Of a stretch of 64,000 nt of DNA, positions 3,701 to 59,179 are shown piece after piece; within the stretch, counting starts at the first letter, position 1, and each line of letters opens with the position of its first letter. This stretch comes from an uncultured Rhizobiaceae group bacterium (GTDB taxonomy: Bacteria > Pseudomonadota > Alphaproteobacteria > Rhizobiales > Rhizobiaceae): NCBI GenBank assembly GCA_947501445.1, contig CANMVS010000019.1:1-64000 (forward strand), read 5' to 3'. The translations under genes and the position numbers were made by a program. The notes below the pieces were generated by a model, which had not been told where the DNA came from, ran no database searches, and saw only the letters and a list, made by a program, of their open reading frames with translations.

Positions 3701-6700
3701 CCACCCCGACCGGACACCGCACCGGTCGCATAGGAGTTTGCAACTTCGCTGCCCGACCACATATTGCCAACCAGGCCGCCGACCAAGGAACCTCCTTCAA
3801 TATTACCTTGAAAATAGGAGTTGTTGATCACGCCGGCACTTGTAGTGCCCATAAAGCCAACCAGACCGCCCACCCCATTGAAACCGGTTACAGTGCCACC
3901 TGATACAGCAACGTTATTCAGTTGACCGCCGCTGACAACGCCAAAAAGACCGGTATTATGAGTCGACAGTCGCTCAATCTGCAAACCTGCCAAAACATGT
4001 CCGGCACCATCCAACGTGCCTGTAAATGAATTGTGTGCATCGCCAATCGGCACAAAACCAAACTGGCTATCACCGGCATTGGCGGTCTTCCACATATCCG
4101 ACGGGTTATTCAATGCCGATCCTAAATCAATATCATTGGCCAGAAGGTAATCCTGCGCCAGTGTGCCCTGATTCATACCGATCAGTTGAAGCTGATGGGC
4201 ATTGGTAATCGTTGTGGTATGTTCCCATCGCCCAAAGGGACGGGTTTCACCGTCAATCATGGTCCAGTCGTTCGCAAGATTCCAACCCTGGTCTGAATAG
4301 GACGCGGCATTGAAAGCAAAGTTTGTGGCTGAAGGATCTGTGCTTTGTAGCGCTGTAACTCCGCTGACCGTAGCATCAATATTACCCACAGCATGCAGTT
4401 GCCCGGTCGTATCCTTGTCAAAGAATGTATTGAGGAAGAAATTATCGTCATTCACGATTTCACCAACAAGACCGCCTGCAGTGCCTGTTGCCGTTACCAG
4501 TCCGGTCGCATAGCTGTATTGAATTTTATGCGCACCGCTACCGGCCGAGCCGACCAGACCACCAACAGCATTAATTCCGCTTACCGAACCGATGGAATAA
4601 CTGCGGTCAATCACACCACTGTCGAAGTCGACCCCAACCAGTCCACCAACGCCATACATGCCATCCACCACACTGGTAGAATGGGATAGGCTGATCTGGC
4701 CGGAATTTTCACCGACCAGGCCGCCCACACGGGCATTGCCGATCACATGACCACTGGCGTGTGACGTAGCAATGCTGCCAAATGACACACTGCTTTGAGA
4801 GGCCAGATTGGCACCAACCAGGCCGCCTACATATTCAAAGCCAGACACCTGACCGGCATAGGATGTGTCAGTGATTATGCCTGAGAAGGAATTTTGACTG
4901 ACCTTGGAGTTCTTACCGGCCACGCCACCTATGTATGTGCTGAACTCGGTTCTACCGACGACCCCACCCATGGCATGGGATTGTATGATCCGCCCCTGAT
5001 TGTCGCCAACCAGTCCGCCAACGGTATGATTGCCAAGCACCTCACCTGAATATTGCGAATTTTCAATCCAACCGGTATTCCTGCCCGCCAATCCACCAAC
5101 CTGATTGCCCCCTGTGACTGTACCAGTAACATGGGAATAGGAGATACGACCATTATTGATGCCTGCAAGTCCGCCAACGTTATTCAAGCCGACTTTGGCA
5201 AAGGCAACAGCATTCGAATTTGTTATACTGCCACCAACATCGTTAACTCCAACCAACCCGCCGAGGTTGCCAACAGTTCTAACCAAAGTAGACTCAGCGT
5301 GGGAATGAATAACAAAACCCCGGTTTATTCCCACCAAACCACCTATACCCGGATTACTGAAAGTACCCGAAACTAGATTTACCGTCGAATTTGAATGCTC
5401 TATCGTTCCACCGTTCGCAGAACCCTGGTTGGTTCCGACAAGGCCACCGGCCGAACCGGAAAACGTTCCAACCTTGCCAGTTGTGTAGGCATTTTCTATG
5501 TTACCCTCATTCAGACCAACCAATCCACCGACAGACGCCTTTCCTGTCACATCAACGTTCAACAATCCCAGATTGCGGATTGTACCAATGTTATATCCAA
5601 ACAGTCCGATATTGGGCAAAACCGGGAAATTAACCTTCAGGCCGGAGATTGTATGACCATCGCCATCAAAGCTGCCACTGAACGCAACACTGCCACCGGA
5701 ATGGTTAAAGCCCAAAGGTACAAAACCGTTGATATTCCACATGCCGTTGCTGACTCTTTCCGGGCCGAAATCTATGTCATTGGCCAGTGTGTAATCCGCG
5801 CTCAGGTCAATTGTAACCAATTGCAGCTGATGCGTCGTGCTGATTGACGTTGAATACTCCCAACTGCCCATCGGGCGAAAAAAACCATCAATCATAAACC
5901 AGTCGCCGCCAAAATTGAAACCGGCATAGTTGGTAGAGAAATAGGCATCCATATCCACCAATACACCAATGTTGCTGATCGGTGTGTCATCACCTGCCGC
6001 AGTCTGCTGTCCCGTAGATAGCCGATCCCAGTAAACCCCAACAAGTGTTCCCGATGTGTAGTTGCCAAACAGGGCACCCGTGTTCACGCCAGCCGAAACA
6101 GCACCCGCCGCATAGGAATACGAGACATTTCCCGAGTTCGTGCCCGCCAATCCACCTAGTCTTTCATCTCCTGTGATAGAGGCGGTGGAATATGAATTCA
6201 ATATGATGGAATTGTTGTATCCGGCAAGACCGCCTACAGAGTTCGACCCATTGACCGTCCCACTGCTATAGCTCTTTTCTATGACACTAATGTGGGCTTT
6301 GCCAATAAGCCCCCCCACACCATCTGTGCCAGTCGTCGTACCATTGAAATAGGATTGCAACAGCCAACCATTGTCAAGATAGCCTATCAAACCACCTACA
6401 TCTGTCTTCCCGGTGACACTGCCATTGATAACACCAACCTTTTGAATGGTTCCACCATTGGCATAACCAAATAGACCAACGTGATTTTCAGCCGGTCGAT
6501 TAACGGTGAGGCCGGAGATCGCATATCCTGCGCCGTCAAAGCCGCCGGTGAACGGTTGTGCTGCTGTGCCGACAGGTGCAAAACCTTTGCCATCGTTCCA
6601 GCCTACAGTGCCGGAAGCATCAATGTGACCGGCAAGCCTGTACTGCAGTGGCAGGCTAATCTGATTGCCATTGATCCCCTGCAAGCCATAAACGTCGCTT

Positions 6701-33696: not shown

Positions 33697-33714
33697 TCAA
33701 CGATAATTCCGAAA

Positions 33715-34890
33715 TTACTCGGTAATGCTTGCCACGATGCCGGCGCCGACGGTACGACCGCCTTCACGGATAGCAAAGCGAAGCTTTTCTTCCATCGCGA
33801 TGGGCACGATCAGCTCAACATCGACTGTGACATTGTCGCCAGGCATAACCATTTCCGTGCCTTCAGGAAGGGAAACAACACCCGTCACATCCGTTGTACG
33901 GAAATAGAACTGTGGACGGTAGTTGGTGAAGAATGGTGTGTGACGACCACCCTCTTCCTTCGTCAGGATATAGGCTTCAGCCTTGAACTTCTTATGGGGC
34001 TTAACCGAACCAGGCTTACAAAGAACCTGACCACGCTCAACACCTTCACGGTCAACACCACGAAGCAGTGCGCCGATGTTGTCGCCAGCCTGACCCTGAT
34101 CAAGAAGCTTGCGGAACATTTCAACGCCTGTGCAGGTCGTCTTCGATGTGTCCTTGATGCCAACGATTTCAATTTCGTCGCCAACATTGATAATGCCACG
34201 CTCAACACGGCCAGTCACAACTGTACCACGACCCGAGATCGAGAAAACATCCTCAATCGGCATCAGGAACGGCAGATCAACCGGACGCTCAGGCGTTGGA
34301 ATGTAAGCATCAACTTCAGCCATCAAAGCACGCACAGCGTCTTCACCAATGGTCTTGTCGCTGTCTTCAAGGGCAGCAAGCGCTGAACCCTTGACGATTG
34401 GAATGTCATCGCCTGGATACTCATAGGTGTCCAGAAGCTCACGAACTTCCATTTCAACAAGCTCAAGAAGCTCTTCATCGTCAACCTGATCAACCTTGTT
34501 CAGGAAAACAACAACCGCCGGAACACCAACCTGACGGGCAAGCAGGATGTGCTCGCGGGTCTGAGGCATCGGGCCATCAGCAGCAGACACAACCAGAATG
34601 GCACCATCCATCTGCGCAGCACCGGTGATCATGTTCTTCACATAGTCGGCGTGACCTGGGCAATCAACGTGGGCGTAGTGACGATTTTCGGTCTCATACT
34701 CAACGTGTGCCGTTGAAATCGTGATACCGCGGGCACGCTCTTCCGGTGCACCGTCAATCTCGTCATAGGCCTTGAAGTCACCAAAGTACTTGGTGATCGC
34801 TGCTGTCAGCGATGTCTTGCCGTGGTCAACGTGGCCAATCGTACCGATGTTAACGTGTGGCTTGTTGCGTTCAAATTTGCTCTTCGCCAT
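33715..34890 (-). CDS. tuf: Elongation factor Tu, copy 1
   Basis: EF-Tu (391 residues) delivers aminoacyl-tRNA to the ribosome. [15 protein letters not shown] (G1), [12 protein letters not shown] (switch I/G2), DCPGHADY (G3) and NKVDQVDD (G4) are visible, followed by domains II and III ending [10 protein letters not shown]. The protein is identical residue by residue to copy 2 at 58004-59179, which is typical of gene conversion between tuf copies. This is the str-operon copy, downstream of fusA. Confidence 0.98.
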
Positions 34891-54890: not shown

Positions 54891-55088
54891 CTAACCAACA
54901 TTCAATACCAGCCCAACGAGCCAGCCCAAAAGCTGATCAGCCGCAAAGAAAAACGCTGCTGCCAGGATAACCATGATCAGAACCATCAGCGTGGAAATCA
55001 TTGTTTCCCGCCTTGAAGGCCATGTCACTTTTGACGTTTCAGCGCGCACTTGCTGCAGAAACGTAAAGGGATTTGTTTTGGATGCCAT
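54891..55088 (-). CDS. secE: Preprotein translocase subunit SecE
   Basis: SecE (65 residues, ATG at 55088) has the single-span alphaproteobacterial form: an amphipathic helix (FLQQVRAETSKVTWPSRRET) and one membrane segment (TLMVLIMVILAAAFFFAADQ). A perfect 8-bp inverted repeat (CATTTACG/CGTAAATG, 55101-55119) lies 13 bases upstream of its start and could affect translation. It forms an operon with nusG. Confidence 0.96.
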   Translation of the reverse strand: MASKTNPFTFLQQVRAETSKVTWPSRRETMISTLMVLIMVILAAAFFFAADQLLGWLVGLVLNVG

Positions 55089-55103
55089 AAGCCGCTCACG
55101 CAT

Positions 55104-56081
55104 TTACGGCGCGTAAATGAGGCCCACCAGCCCCACGCGCCGCGTGTCTGTTTTTTTCCTTAATAATCACCGATTCCAAAAACTACAAGGGGTTATCGGT
55201 AAATTATTACACGAAAGTGAAAAGTTCGTCGTTCCGCAATTCAACGTAACGAGACACATAAAGTGCTCATGCCGCATATAAAATTCAAGAGGACCACACT
55301 ACGAGAACTCAAAACACCGCCAGATTTTACACGATCACAGGACATGTTTGTACACCATTGTGACTGCGACATCTGAACCCAGATTGCTTTTTTAGTATAT
55401 TGAGACCCAATACTGTCGTCCCGGGATCAATAGACCAGTTTTGAATATTGTCAAACTGATATTGAAGAATAGGCAAAGCGTCCGTCGCCTGCACAAGATG
55501 GAAGCACGAGAACTGCGGCATCCTGGCGACTGATTGGCAAACTGTGGAGAATGCTGCATGCCGCCACACATGCGGTGCATCATGTCTGCTGTTGAGGCAC
55601 GTGCGAATCGGCTTATCCAACAATTGCAATTGAGTTGTTTTGTATGTCTGCGATCTGTCAGACTGTACTCAAACCAATGCCACATTTGGTCTGCTCTCGG
55701 CAGAACTCCCGACACGCCCCTCCTGGCCGTCTGTTTGCTGGTACAACATCGGCACGGTCAGCAAGGCGCAGCCCCATCACACATCCATGCACCACAAGTA
55801 GCCAAGACGATTGATGCCCGGCACTGCGCTGTCAATGATGTCGCTGTGCCTATTCGCGATGCGCTGAATAGTGAGAAGGCTGGAGGGAAAGTGGCATCAA
55901 GGTAATCACTTTTTTTGGTTCGCCCGAAATAGCGAGATAACCAGTCATACCATATAAGCGATTCATAATTTCTGTTCCTCAGCGCAAGGATTTAAAAGTG
56001 GAACAATACATTTTATTGCTTCCATTTATATATATGTATGTCTATACTTATAAAACACAAAATCTCGGAGGTAATAAAGGC
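55104..56081. other. Upstream region of secE and decayed sequence
   Basis: On the minus strand TTGTAG (55188-55183) and TATTAA (55165-55160), 17 bases apart, form a possible secE promoter. From about 55330 to 55905 no intact gene is visible, but a pseudogene copy of the small secreted protein is present at 55720-55905. From 55990 the sequence becomes very AT-rich ahead of the intact copy. Confidence 0.45.
55720..55905 (+). pseudogene. Decayed copy of the small secreted protein
   Basis: The reading frame here encodes HIHAPQVAKTIDARHCAVND followed by VAVPIRDALNSEKAGGKV, which aligns with HTHAPQAAQTIDATHCSIND and VAVLTQDAPSCEKAGGEV of the intact gene at 56082. The DNA also aligns upstream (around TGGTACAACATCGGCACGGT), but with small deletions, and no signal peptide or start is left. 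Its second Cys position is lost. It stands 0.2 kb upstream of the intact copy, in the same orientation. Confidence 0.7.
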
Positions 56082-56504
56082 ATGGCTTCAAAGTTAGCTA
56101 AAACTGCACTAGCGACTTGTTTGGTGTTCGGGGCATCGGGTGTTGGATCAGTATACGCTGAAGAAACTTGGCACATGAAGGAAGGGGCTGCACAACAAGC
56201 CTTCTTCGCTATCCCAACGGCCCCTCCCGGAATGGTGCCCATGATTGTCTATGTGCCTGCACAACAGATGCATGGCCAACCAATGGCAGCACCGGTGCAG
56301 CCAATCCCACCCCACACACATGCACCACAGGCGGCACAGACAATTGACGCAACGCATTGCTCAATTAATGATGTAGCCGTGCTGACACAGGATGCGCCGA
56401 GCTGTGAAAAGGCTGGCGGGGAGGTTGTGGCTGAGAGGGCTAGTTTTGGTCATTGCAAAAGCCACCCTCTTAACGCAAAATGGCCTATATGCAGCAACTT
56501 ATAA
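56082..56504 (+). CDS. Small secreted protein with C-terminal cysteines, unknown function
   Basis: This 140-residue protein has a clear signal peptide (MASKLAKTALATCLVFGASG, cleaved after VYA at about residue 26). A Pro/His/Met/Gln-rich middle (APPGMVPMIVYVPAQQMHGQ, PVQPIPPHTHAP) follows, then a C-terminal part with four cysteines at 93, 108, 125 and 137. A strong ribosome binding site (GGAGG) stands nine bases before the ATG at 56082, so the longer upstream frame is rejected. I do not recognise the family. The mature protein probably forms two disulphides in the periplasm or outside the cell. Two decayed relatives flank it, which shows that it is a member of a locally duplicated family. It lies on the strand opposite to the operons around it and in DNA that is more AT-rich at its 5' side, which suggests acquisition. 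Confidence 0.78.
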   Translation: MASKLAKTALATCLVFGASGVGSVYAEETWHMKEGAAQQAFFAIPTAPPGMVPMIVYVPAQQMHGQPMAAPVQPIPPHTHAPQAAQTIDATHCSINDVAVLTQDAPSCEKAGGEVVAERASFGHCKSHPLNAKWPICSNL

Positions 56505-56637
56505 GAACCTGTGAGCAAACATGCTGAAATGGGTCGGATGGGTTAATAGCTACTCTTCCGATTGAATATATGAGTGAATTGCCAAGTATAAACTTGCTGT
56601 CAGATTCCCAATCTGATCGTAAAGTGGAAAACCGGAG

Positions 56638-56671
56638 CTGCCGACTTGGCGTAACCACTCTCGGCAGTTTT
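56638..56671 (+). terminator. Weak terminator after the small secreted gene
   Basis: CTGCCGA (56638-56644) and TCGGCAG (56661-56667) pair around a 16-base loop and are followed by TTTTC. It lies about 130 bases past the stop of the secreted protein. Confidence 0.35.
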
Positions 56672-57135
56672 CATTGTTGTTAGAAGGCTTTGAATCCCCT
56701 CAATCCCTATCAGGTATTCACATTCACCGTGTGTCCAGTTTCTTACTAACACTAACCGGCGCCGGAGCGGTTAAGATTGATATCGTGACCGAATTTTGCA
56801 TCTATCCTGGTTAATCAGATGCCCAATGTGCCTCTTTTACCAACCATCGCGGTCATTGAGCGCTTCAATATTGGTATTCAATACAACCGCAATCAGCATC
56901 TTTGATATTGGAGTTTAGTGGGCATCATAACAGATGGAGGTGATCATCAAATCCATTTCGCGTGCGAAAGCTGGATCGAATTCTGACGAAATAAAGTGGA
57001 CACGGTATCGAAAGAGAAGGACCCAATGCCTGGATTCTGTGTCAAAACAACAACGTAGCACCGCATCAAACGCAAATGATTGTCTGCCTCTCAATACCAT
57101 CAATACCACACAGATCACTGGCTAAATGATGCTGT

Positions 57136-57225
57136 ACTATCGACGCCACCCGACAAGTTTCTGTGATCGCCTGTGTGCCACTGATGACACAGGATGCGTC
57201 GAGTTGCTGGAGGGTCTGTTGGAAG
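57136..57225 (+). pseudogene. Second decayed copy of the small secreted protein
   Basis: In frame, the DNA reads TIDATRQVSVIACVPLMTQD then ASSC, matching TIDATHCSINDVAVLTQDAP and SC of the intact protein with a few inserted residues. At DNA level ACACAGGATGCG is shared exactly. The sequence then diverges. It is 0.65 kb downstream of the intact copy, in the same orientation. Confidence 0.6.
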
Positions 57226-57655
57226 ATATTTATGAAGAGAGTAATTCATGTTTGAAGCCCCACCAAAGGAGGTGGCGACGGTTGGCACAGCGCTTCAGAA
57301 AGCAGTCAGTTGCTATGACGGACTGTGTCAAATGGAATTTTCAATCAGCGGCACAATCCGATATCGGGAATACATTATCATAAAGAAGTTCGTTCTCGAA
57401 ACAGCCAGCAGTTACACTTGGCGGCAAACTCGACATAGATATCAGGCAAAGCCGGTTGAAGAAGTGTCATAACCTATCAGTTATGCTGAGCTGAACACGG
57501 AATATGGCTTTTAAACTTCATGCAGTATAGTCTGGAATACATCGACCTGGAGCAAAAAACACTGCAAACTATCGACAACCCGTTAGGCACGTGGGTGTCA
57601 CCCATGTCTTAGGTACAATCTGCTACCTATCTCTCCGGGTCGGACACACTTGACT

Positions 57656-57731
57656 TGGCAGGGGCACACAGACTCGAACTGTGGACCTACGGTTTTGGAG
57701 ACCGTCGCTCTACCAACTGAGCTATACCCCT
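57656..57731 (-). tRNA. tRNA-Trp (CCA anticodon)
   Basis: The minus strand folds as a normal 76-base tRNA with acceptor AGGGGTA/TGCCCCT, D-loop AGCTCAGTTGGTAGAGC, anticodon loop TCTCCAAAA (anticodon CCA), T-loop GTTCGAGTC and genome-encoded CCA end. It keeps its conserved position between tuf and secE, although 2.5 kb of other DNA now separates it from secE. Confidence 0.96.
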
Positions 57732-57884: not shown

Positions 57885-57901
57885 AAGATTATTCTTGCAC
57901 C

Positions 57902-57936
57902 ATCACTCCGTAATGCTTGCCACGATACCGGCGCCG
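57902..57936 (-). repeat. Duplicate of the tuf 3' end
   Basis: This 35-base segment matches 58003-58037, the last codons and stop of tuf copy 2, at 34 of 35 positions. Read on the minus strand it still encodes [10 protein letters not shown] and a stop. The single difference (GTAATGC instead of GTGATGC) agrees with tuf copy 1. The two copies are 101 bases apart, with 66 bases of unrelated sequence between them. Confidence 0.9.
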
Positions 57937-58002
57937 TAACAAAACGCGCTTGCGCGCCTTTTGTCACTTTAGGTGCGTCGGCAGCTTTCGCTATCGCGCA
58001 AG
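57937..58002 (-). other. 66-base sequence separating the two tuf ends
   Basis: The segment contains an inverted repeat (57939-57964: ACAAAA with CGCGC on one side, GCGCG with TTTTGT on the other). On the minus strand it reads as a short GC hairpin followed by TTTTGTT, so it can act as a terminator. It has no coding potential. It may be a small inserted element; the family is not recognised. Confidence 0.55.
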
Positions 58003-58003
58003 A

Positions 58004-59179
58004 TCACTCCGTGATGCTTGCCACGATACCGGCGCCGACGGTACGACCGCCTTCACGGATAGCAAAGCGAAGCTTTTCTTCCATCGCGATAGGCACGATC
58101 AGCTCAACATCAACAGTGACATTGTCGCCAGGCATAACCATTTCCGTGCCTTCAGGAAGAGAAACAACACCCGTCACATCCGTTGTACGGAAATAGAACT
58201 GTGGACGGTAGTTGGTGAAGAATGGTGTGTGACGACCACCCTCTTCCTTCGTCAGGATATAGGCTTCAGCCTTGAACTTCTTATGGGGCTTAACCGAACC
58301 AGGCTTACAAAGAACCTGACCACGCTCAACACCTTCACGATCGACACCACGAAGCAGTGCGCCGATGTTGTCACCAGCCTGACCCTGATCAAGAAGCTTG
58401 CGGAACATTTCAACGCCTGTGCAGGTCGTCTTCGATGTGTCCTTGATGCCAACGATTTCAATTTCGTCGCCAACATTGATAATGCCACGCTCAACACGGC
58501 CAGTCACAACTGTACCACGACCCGAGATCGAGAAAACATCCTCAATCGGCATCAGGAACGGCAGATCAACCGGACGCTCAGGCGTTGGAATGTAAGCATC
58601 AACTTCAGCCATCAATGCTCGCACAGCGTCTTCACCAATGGTCTTGTCGCTGTCTTCAAGGGCAGCAAGCGCTGAACCCTTGACGATTGGAATGTCATCG
58701 CCTGGATACTCATAGGTGTCCAGAAGCTCACGAACTTCCATTTCAACAAGCTCAAGAAGCTCTTCATCGTCAACCTGATCAACTTTGTTCAGGAAAACAA
58801 CAACCGCCGGAACACCAACCTGACGGGCAAGCAGGATGTGCTCGCGGGTCTGAGGCATCGGGCCATCAGCAGCAGACACAACCAGAATGGCACCATCCAT
58901 CTGCGCAGCACCGGTGATCATGTTCTTCACATAGTCGGCGTGACCTGGGCAATCAACGTGGGCGTAGTGACGATTTTCAGTCTCATATTCAACGTGGGCC
59001 GTTGAAATCGTGATACCGCGGGCACGCTCTTCCGGTGCACCGTCAATCTCGTCATAGGCCTTGAAGTCACCAAAGTACTTGGTGATCGCTGCTGTCAGCG
59101 ATGTCTTGCCGTGGTCAACGTGGCCAATCGTACCGATGTTAACGTGTGGCTTGTTGCGTTCAAATTTGCTCTTCGCCAT
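58004..59179 (-). CDS. tuf: Elongation factor Tu, copy 2
   Basis: This 391-residue EF-Tu is identical in protein sequence to copy 1 (33715-34890), with only scattered silent differences in the DNA. GTPase motifs [16 protein letters not shown] and NKVDQVDD are intact. It is the copy that sits upstream of tRNA-Trp and secE in this group of bacteria. The 5' flank differs from copy 1, so it has a separate promoter. The stop at 58004 is followed by the duplicated tuf end. Confidence 0.98.

What the first reader, a model, noticed from the sequence alone, without database searches (positions are those of the whole stretch)
55330..57655. A decaying family of small secreted proteins inserted between secE and tRNA-Trp
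Between secE and tRNA-Trp, normally adjacent in these bacteria, lie about 2.5 kb with one intact 140-residue secreted protein (signal peptide, His/Pro/Met-rich middle, four Cys) and two decayed copies in the same orientation. The shared blocks H-x-HAPQ-A-TIDA-H-C-x-ND-V-V and TQDA-SC are seen directly. The DNA near the intact copy is AT-rich. One intact member beside two relics suggests repeated duplication and loss, as in lineage-specific effector or bacteriocin-like genes. The intact member has no family I recognise.
Basis: partly seen in the sequence, partly recalled or inferred. Interest (0 to 1): 0.75.

Follow-up and report, generated by a model that had tools for sequence, protein, structure and literature searches.

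The report
Prophage-linked proteins with hypervariable cysteine tails
One bacterial genome carries 26 copies of a small exported protein whose body is well conserved but whose last dozen or so residues, usually a loop pinned by two cysteines, differ completely from copy to copy, as if it were a repertoire of binding or attacking loops.

Summary
The gene at 56082-56504 is real and is one of 26 open copies at 13 places in this genome. No credible homologue appeared in 7 congeners or in 297 sampled family genomes (own included); one distant candidate turned up in the order. No Pfam, NCBIfam or PHROG family fits.

Copies share a signal peptide, a variable linker, a conserved core (pN/pS 0.18-0.19) and a short tail. 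Tails are unrelated, yet 19 of 26 hold exactly two Cys, one holds four, six none, and none an odd number. In 10 close pairs tails changed more than the core's silent sites predict; one excluded pair kept its tail. In 12 of 26 copies homologous DNA resumes right after the tail: the end of a phage lysis-type gene. Three copies lie in, or at the end of, two unlike prophages.

The upstream relic is firm, the downstream one weak. The secE/tRNA-Trp gap is short in 4 of 7 congeners; three carry other inserts.

My reading: an exported disulphide scaffold with a diversified loop, perhaps a receptor-blocking prophage function. Function is inferred.

The parts
54891..55103 (-). secE, left flank
   Evidence: Pfam SecE E 3.5e-20; ORF
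55741..55902 (+). Relic of a family copy, core only, same orientation
   Evidence: profile E 1.2e-9; tblastn E 1.1e-14 over 55693-55914; DNA score 77 vs 29 for the best shuffle
55982..56081 (+). AT-rich leader with ribosome-binding site GGAGG at 56067-56071
   Evidence: sequence; leaders of the copies compared; mean GC of 26 leaders 31.6%
56082..56504 (+). Intact family gene, 140 aa
   Evidence: core under purifying selection across the family
56082..56159 (+). Sec-type signal peptide, residues 1-26
   Evidence: hydropathy and pattern script, no dedicated predictor
56160..56207 (+). Variable linker, residues 27-42
   Evidence: pN/pS 0.90 for residues 27-42, 276 pairs of 24 copies
56208..56447 (+). 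Conserved core, residues 43-122, with the Cys93/Cys108 pair and the HTH and THC motifs
   Evidence: alignment A2; pN/pS 0.19 (residues 48-63) and 0.18 (78-122)
56448..56501 (+). Hypervariable tail, residues 123-140, with Cys125 and Cys137
56652..56757 (.). Faint remnant of element D (antisense end of the phage 89-aa gene)
   Evidence: local alignment 70 of 94 identical, score 56 vs 34 for the best of 30 shuffles; weak
57052..57231 (+). Possible second relic of a family copy
   Evidence: profile E 0.216, one stop; DNA score 36 vs 29 for the best shuffle at 57174-57206; weak
57488..57646 (.). Remnant of a repeated element, transposase-like by eye
   Evidence: 90% identical over 160 nt to L094:1882-2041
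57656..57731 (-). tRNA-Trp; its 3' end faces the insert
   Evidence: ARAGORN

Best explanation
Shown: this is one member of a 26-copy family, each copy an exported small protein with a conserved core and a short C-terminal tail that differs completely between most copies but carries Cys in pairs. Shown: several copies sit in or beside prophage genes, and many are followed by the end of a phage lysis-type gene. Inferred: the protein is exported by Sec, oxidised in the periplasm to two disulphides (one in the core, one closing the tail loop), and uses the loop to bind a partner that differs from copy to copy. Inferred and least certain: it arrived as prophage cargo and acts like the small periplasmic superinfection-exclusion proteins Llp and Cor, each loop blocking a different surface receptor or incoming phage component, so that a collection of variants pays.
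For: 26 open copies at 13 places on 8 contigs. Core pN/pS 0.18-0.19 over 276 pairs. Tail Cys counts 2 (19 copies), 4 (1), 0 (6), never odd; nucleotide-shuffled tails give on average 7.7 odd tails and 2.0 with exactly two, at most 8. Tails rich in C, W, P, G and poor in R, V, L against shuffled tails. In 10 pairs with core pS <= 0.46, tail identity 0.510 against 0.519 shuffled and 0.651 expected at the core's silent rate; 0 of 10 reach the expectation (the pairs share copies and are not independent). Prophage setting: two copies within a prophage with primase, methyltransferase, HNH, terminase, portal and capsid genes; one convergent to a muramidase lysis block of a podovirus-like prophage related to Rhizobium phages; all 12 matches of the 89-aa phage gene in this genome lie directly downstream of family copies. 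Llp is periplasmic, has a disulphide, and lies next to the receptor-binding gene (PMC9586334, passages).
Against: No lipobox at the cleavage site, unlike Llp and Cor. Only 3 of 26 copies are shown to lie in or at the end of a recognisable prophage; others sit between housekeeping genes. No receptor, phage or phenotype was tested. Six of 26 tails have no Cys, and the pair C1_32218/C1_34857 kept similar tails (83% against 54% shuffled). The structure model is of low confidence (pLDDT 60 whole, 72 for the last 55 residues). The silent divergence of the core is large, so part of the tail divergence may be mere relaxed constraint over a long time. HxH and Met-rich motifs in the core could point to metal binding instead.
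Confidence: 0.33

Rival explanations
1. Antagonistic exported peptides: each tail loop is a toxin-like or bacteriocin-like warhead on a common carrier, released from the cell, and the copies form an arsenal against competing bacteria.
For: Short, Cys-looped, W/P/G-rich hypervariable ends; expansion in one species with loss of copies; prophage linkage is common for bacteriocin-like cargo (recalled).
Against: No partner that could be an immunity gene recurs beside the copies among crude ORFs of 70 aa or more; the only recurring neighbours are the phage lysis-type genes and a few small or antisense frames. No export route beyond the periplasm was identified.
Confidence: 0.23
2. Host- or environment-facing effectors or self-recognition ligands: the loop is read by a receptor of a eukaryotic host or of sister cells, and variation evades or encodes recognition.
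For: Restriction to one species and strong diversification fit recognition arms races; the conserved-body, variable-end plan resembles conotoxin precursors (PMC3823881, abstract in listing).
Against: The organism's name and lifestyle are unknown here; many copies are linked to phage genes, which this reading does not need.
Confidence: 0.14
3. Periplasmic metal-binding proteins: the HTH, THC and Met-rich core binds copper or zinc, and the tail is a poorly constrained stabilising disulphide.
For: H78, H80 and H92 nearly invariant, C93, C108 and M54 invariant in 26 members.
Against: Does not explain why tails change more than silent sites predict, why paired Cys persist in otherwise unrelated tails, or 26 copies.
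Confidence: 0.12
4. Processed peptide precursors: signal peptide and core are a leader, and the tail is cut off and released as a small cyclic peptide.
For: Conserved front and hypervariable Cys end, as in prochlorosin precursors (PMC10783134, abstract in listing).
Against: The core is under strong purifying selection and itself holds a Cys pair; no match to leader families in Pfam or NCBIfam; no processing enzyme was found or systematically sought.
Confidence: 0.08
5. Repeated DNA with accidental open frames, not a protein family.
For: The copies are embedded in repeat-rich, decayed intergenic DNA.
Against: Core pN/pS 0.18-0.19, signal peptides in 25 of 26 copies by pattern, Cys parity in tails.
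Confidence: 0.02

Closest known systems
Llp (phage T5) and Cor (phages phi80, N15, T1) superinfection-exclusion proteins
   Same: Small exported phage-encoded proteins with a disulphide and high divergence; Llp is encoded beside phage structural genes and acts from the periplasm (PMC9586334, passages; PMC11436027, passages)
   Different: Llp and Cor are lipoproteins; these copies have no lipobox at the cleavage site. No comparison of sequences with Llp or Cor was run, and no receptor is known.
Conotoxin precursors
   Same: Signal peptide, conserved body, hypervariable Cys-bracketed end, large paralogous family (PMC3823881 and PMC4278219, abstracts in listing)
   Different: Animal toxins; here the conserved body is long and holds its own Cys pair, and cleavage of the end is unknown. 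Likeness of plan only.
Prochlorosin and similar RiPP precursors
   Same: Many paralogous precursors in one bacterium with variable Cys-bearing ends (PMC10783134, abstract in listing)
   Different: These carry a Sec signal peptide and no known leader family; no modifying enzyme identified.
Polymorphic toxin systems
   Same: Conserved front and exchangeable C-terminal end (PMC3482391, abstract in listing)
   Different: Tails here are 2-38 residues, no toxin domain, no trafficking domain known, no recurrent immunity gene seen.
Two exported proteins of a distant relative in the same order (L103:7678-8175 and L103:9447-10334)
   Same: C-terminal C-x-I-x-x-(V/I)-x-x-L-T-x5-C-x-x-x-G-G motif; signal-like starts; neighbouring genes
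   Different: Both end soon after the GG, without the Cys tail. Profile E 8.5e-5 and 2.2e-4 only, and dihydropteroate-synthase-like proteins reached 5e-5 to 1e-3 by chance with a related profile, so the link is tentative.

Membership tests
Llp/Cor superinfection-exclusion lipoproteins | Lipoprotein signal with lipobox at the cleavage site | tested here: not met
   Pattern found in 2 of 25 copies and there at residue 13, inside the hydrophobic stretch
Llp/Cor superinfection-exclusion lipoproteins | Encoded by a phage or prophage | tested here: inconclusive
   3 of 26 copies in or at the end of two prophages; phage-gene ends behind others; many between housekeeping genes
Llp/Cor superinfection-exclusion lipoproteins | Blocks a phage receptor from the periplasm | not testable with these tools
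   needs an infection assay
Diversity-generating retroelement target | Reverse transcriptase and template/variable repeat pair acting on the gene end | tested here: not met
   One RVT_1 match in the genome, on another contig and beside an HTH gene, retron-like by eye; tails differ in length and have no second copy in the 279 kb of own DNA held; a template elsewhere in the genome was not sought
Prochlorosin-type RiPP precursor | Known leader family | tested here: not met
   No Pfam or NCBIfam family matches more than 2 of 26 members, none credibly
Prochlorosin-type RiPP precursor | Modifying enzyme in the genome | not tested
   no search made
Polymorphic toxin | C-terminal toxin domain with an adjacent immunity gene | tested here: not met
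   Tails of 2-38 residues; no recurring neighbour of that kind among crude ORFs
Any curated family | Match to Pfam, NCBIfam, PHROGs or a PDB sequence or fold | tested here: not met
   two members; 26 members; best E 0.32; best E 2.2, low-confidence model

The most novel reading that the evidence does not exclude
A single bacterium keeps a repertoire of about 20 different disulphide loops, all displayed on one exported scaffold and spread by prophages, and exchanges or rewrites the loop segment much faster than its flanks by a process other than a diversity-generating retroelement: a bacterial analogue of a variable binding-loop repertoire.
Probability: 0.22. Interest if true: 0.88.

Novelty: new variant of a known kind. 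Interest (0 to 1): 0.66.

Why it matters
Large paralogous families with a fixed body and a hypervariable Cys-paired end are known from venoms and from some cyanobacterial peptides, but I found no description of an exported, prophage-linked bacterial family of this plan (an open-access library only). If the loops bind phage receptors or competitors, the 26 tails are a ready-made set of natural binding loops, and the question of how the tail changes while both flanks stay homologous can be tested directly by sequencing sister strains.

Tried and rejected
Diversity-generating retroelement: rejected for want of a suitable reverse transcriptase. Homologues in named genomes, phages, plasmids and viral contigs: none (the tools say that records very near the window's genome may be left out). 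Three phylum-level profile hits were dihydropteroate-synthase-like proteins by eye and were dropped. Weak hits in relatives (best 5.5e-4, 24% identity, four stops inside) and one at 0.00545 with a stop were dropped. PDB profile matches to coronavirus spike at E 0.32 or worse were taken as chance. The fold search of a low-confidence 55-residue model gave nothing. I first took the unalignable tails as proof of cassette replacement; the large silent divergence of the core made me weaken that to 'changes more than silent sites predict'. The D comparison used only the 12 copies with strong D out of 26, and its identities count aligned columns only, so it favours high values. pN/pS left out 2 of 26 copies; one search left out 5 of 26 copies (short, Cys-free or read-through tails), among them the one pair with similar tails. 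Searches of relatives scored at most 10-14 candidates per genome in the large samples, so a weak homologue could be missed.

Full report
What is there. The ORF at 56082-56504 encodes 140 residues after a good ribosome-binding site. A search of the window's own genome (6.82 Mb, 110 contigs) found it to be one of many: a profile of the family gives 27 matches, 26 open copies and the upstream relic. I extracted the 26 from the window and 11 fetched stretches. They lie at 13 places on 8 contigs, including arrays of five (contig C2) and six (C8). One (C1_34857) lacks its front; one (C8_216268) starts with GTG.

Anatomy. Aligned, the copies show a signal peptide, a variable linker, a core ending in ...THCSINDVAVLTQDAPSCEKAGGKVVAERASF, and a tail. 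Signal peptides have a charged start and hydrophobic stretch in 25 of 25 copies checked; a strict A-x-A-like cut was found in 18 of 25, and a lipobox pattern in 2 of 25, both too early (a script, not a dedicated predictor). Among 276 pairs of 24 copies pN/pS is 0.19 and 0.18 in the two core blocks, 0.90 in the linker, 0.77 in the tail and 0.72 in the signal peptide. The core is therefore translated and constrained. The tail and linker figures rest on poor alignments.

The tail. Tails run from 2 to 38 residues. Cys counts are 2 in 19 copies, 4 in one, 0 in six; none is odd. Shuffling each tail's nucleotides (2000 rounds) gives 7.7 odd tails and 2.0 tails with exactly two on average, at most 8. 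Loops span 4-12 residues except one of 26. Tails are enriched in C, W, P and G and depleted in R, V and L against shuffled DNA. For the 10 pairs with core pS up to 0.46 (5 of 26 copies excluded), tail identity is 0.510, the same as shuffled (0.519) and below 0.651, the value expected had the tail changed at the core's silent rate; 0 of 10 pairs reach it. These pairs share copies. Against this, the Cys-free pair C1_32218/C1_34857 has similar tails (83% against 54%). One tail (C19_119198) has grown by reading into the DNA behind it.

What follows the tail. In 12 of 26 copies, strongly, the same DNA (element D) resumes within 30 nt of the stop; in 9 more the match is weak but above the best of 30 shuffles; in 5 there is none (D was taken from one of the 12). 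In those 12, core identity averages 0.78, D 0.85, and the interval between 0.72 against 0.70 shuffled. D is the antisense 3' end of an 89-aa gene. That gene has one match in 6 of 7 congeners and four in G003; here it has 12 matches, 2 full-length and 10 partial, and by position all 12 lie directly behind family copies. In a congener it closes a block with an endolysin gene. Its own PHROG matches to spanins and holins are weak (E 0.002 or worse), so 'lysis-type' rests mainly on position.

Prophages. The C16 pair lies some 10 kb from terminase, portal, protease and capsid genes, with primase, methyltransferase and HNH genes on the other side. The C1 copy faces a block with a muramidase (PF11860) at the end of a different, podovirus-like prophage, whose structural protein is 44-48% identical over about half its length to Rhizobium and Sulfitobacter phages. 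One C11 copy lies beside an anti-repressor gene. Other copies stand between housekeeping genes, for example aminotransferase, lipoyl ligase or MatE genes and, in the window, secE and tRNA-Trp.

Spread. With single-sequence and profile searches I found no credible homologue in 60 relatives, 7 congeners, 297 family genomes including the own one or 385 class genomes including the own one. In the order (397 genomes including the own one) one genome, G607, has two neighbouring exported proteins with a similar C-terminal motif and no Cys tail (E 8.5e-5 and 2.2e-4). The much better E-values are circular, since these two were in the profile. Three phylum hits are dihydropteroate-synthase-like by eye, which shows that such E-values can arise by chance. 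Scans of genome contigs and viral contigs and tblastn in phages and plasmids gave nothing. Samples overlap, and only part of the candidates was scored per genome.

The locus. The secE/tRNA-Trp gap varies in the genus: short in G005, G001, G006 and G007, 2.4 kb in G004 and over 5 kb in G002 and G003, where by eye an oxidoreductase remnant and RTX/type-I-secretion genes sit. The 3' end of the tRNA faces the insert. It is an insertion-prone spot, and the family gene is one of several occupants.

Structure. AlphaFold gave a weak model of the whole (pLDDT 60) and a fair one of the last 55 residues (pLDDT 72, pTM 0.39): two strands, a short helix, a third strand, then the tail. Foldseek found nothing in the PDB (best E 2.2).

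Reading. Shown: family, conserved core, paired-Cys hypervariable tail, phage linkage of several copies. Inferred: export, disulphides, loop as binding surface. The best functional guess is exclusion of other phages by blocking receptors, because prophage cargo of small exported disulphide proteins does this in T5 and relatives (passages of PMC9586334). The missing lipobox means it is not a member of that family. Antagonism against bacteria is nearly as likely.

Noticed in passing
L036:9700-9802, L037:3205-3313 and 5245-5356, L040:3491-3592, L044:985-1089 and 4559-4667, and others: An interspersed intergenic repeat of about 100-120 bp with up to 15-18 matches among the fetched stretches of this genome; nature unknown.
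   Followed up: no
L084:1964-6851 and L089:559-5471: In two congeners the secE/tRNA-Trp gap holds an RTX-like protein with HlyD-like and ABC-transporter-like genes, by eye; in a third an oxidoreductase remnant (L083). An insertion hot spot in the genus.
   Followed up: partly
window 57901-58037: A stretch resembling the 3' end of tuf is repeated just downstream of tuf; double matches at this place also appear in all 7 congeners.
   Followed up: no
window 33714-33911: A second stretch 96% identical to the tuf region 58003-58200, probably another tuf copy.
   Followed up: no
L046:1336-2518: The only RVT_1 match in the genome: a 299-aa reverse transcriptase ORF overlapping an HTH gene, retron-like by eye.
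   Followed up: partly
L038:7641-8030: Another small exported Cys-rich ORF, on the opposite strand beside the C16 pair in the prophage.
   Followed up: no
L103:8265-9143 and L103:9447-10337: Exported proteins made of GISTPFGG-like repeats in a distant relative, one ending in the family's Cys-x-GG motif.
   Followed up: partly
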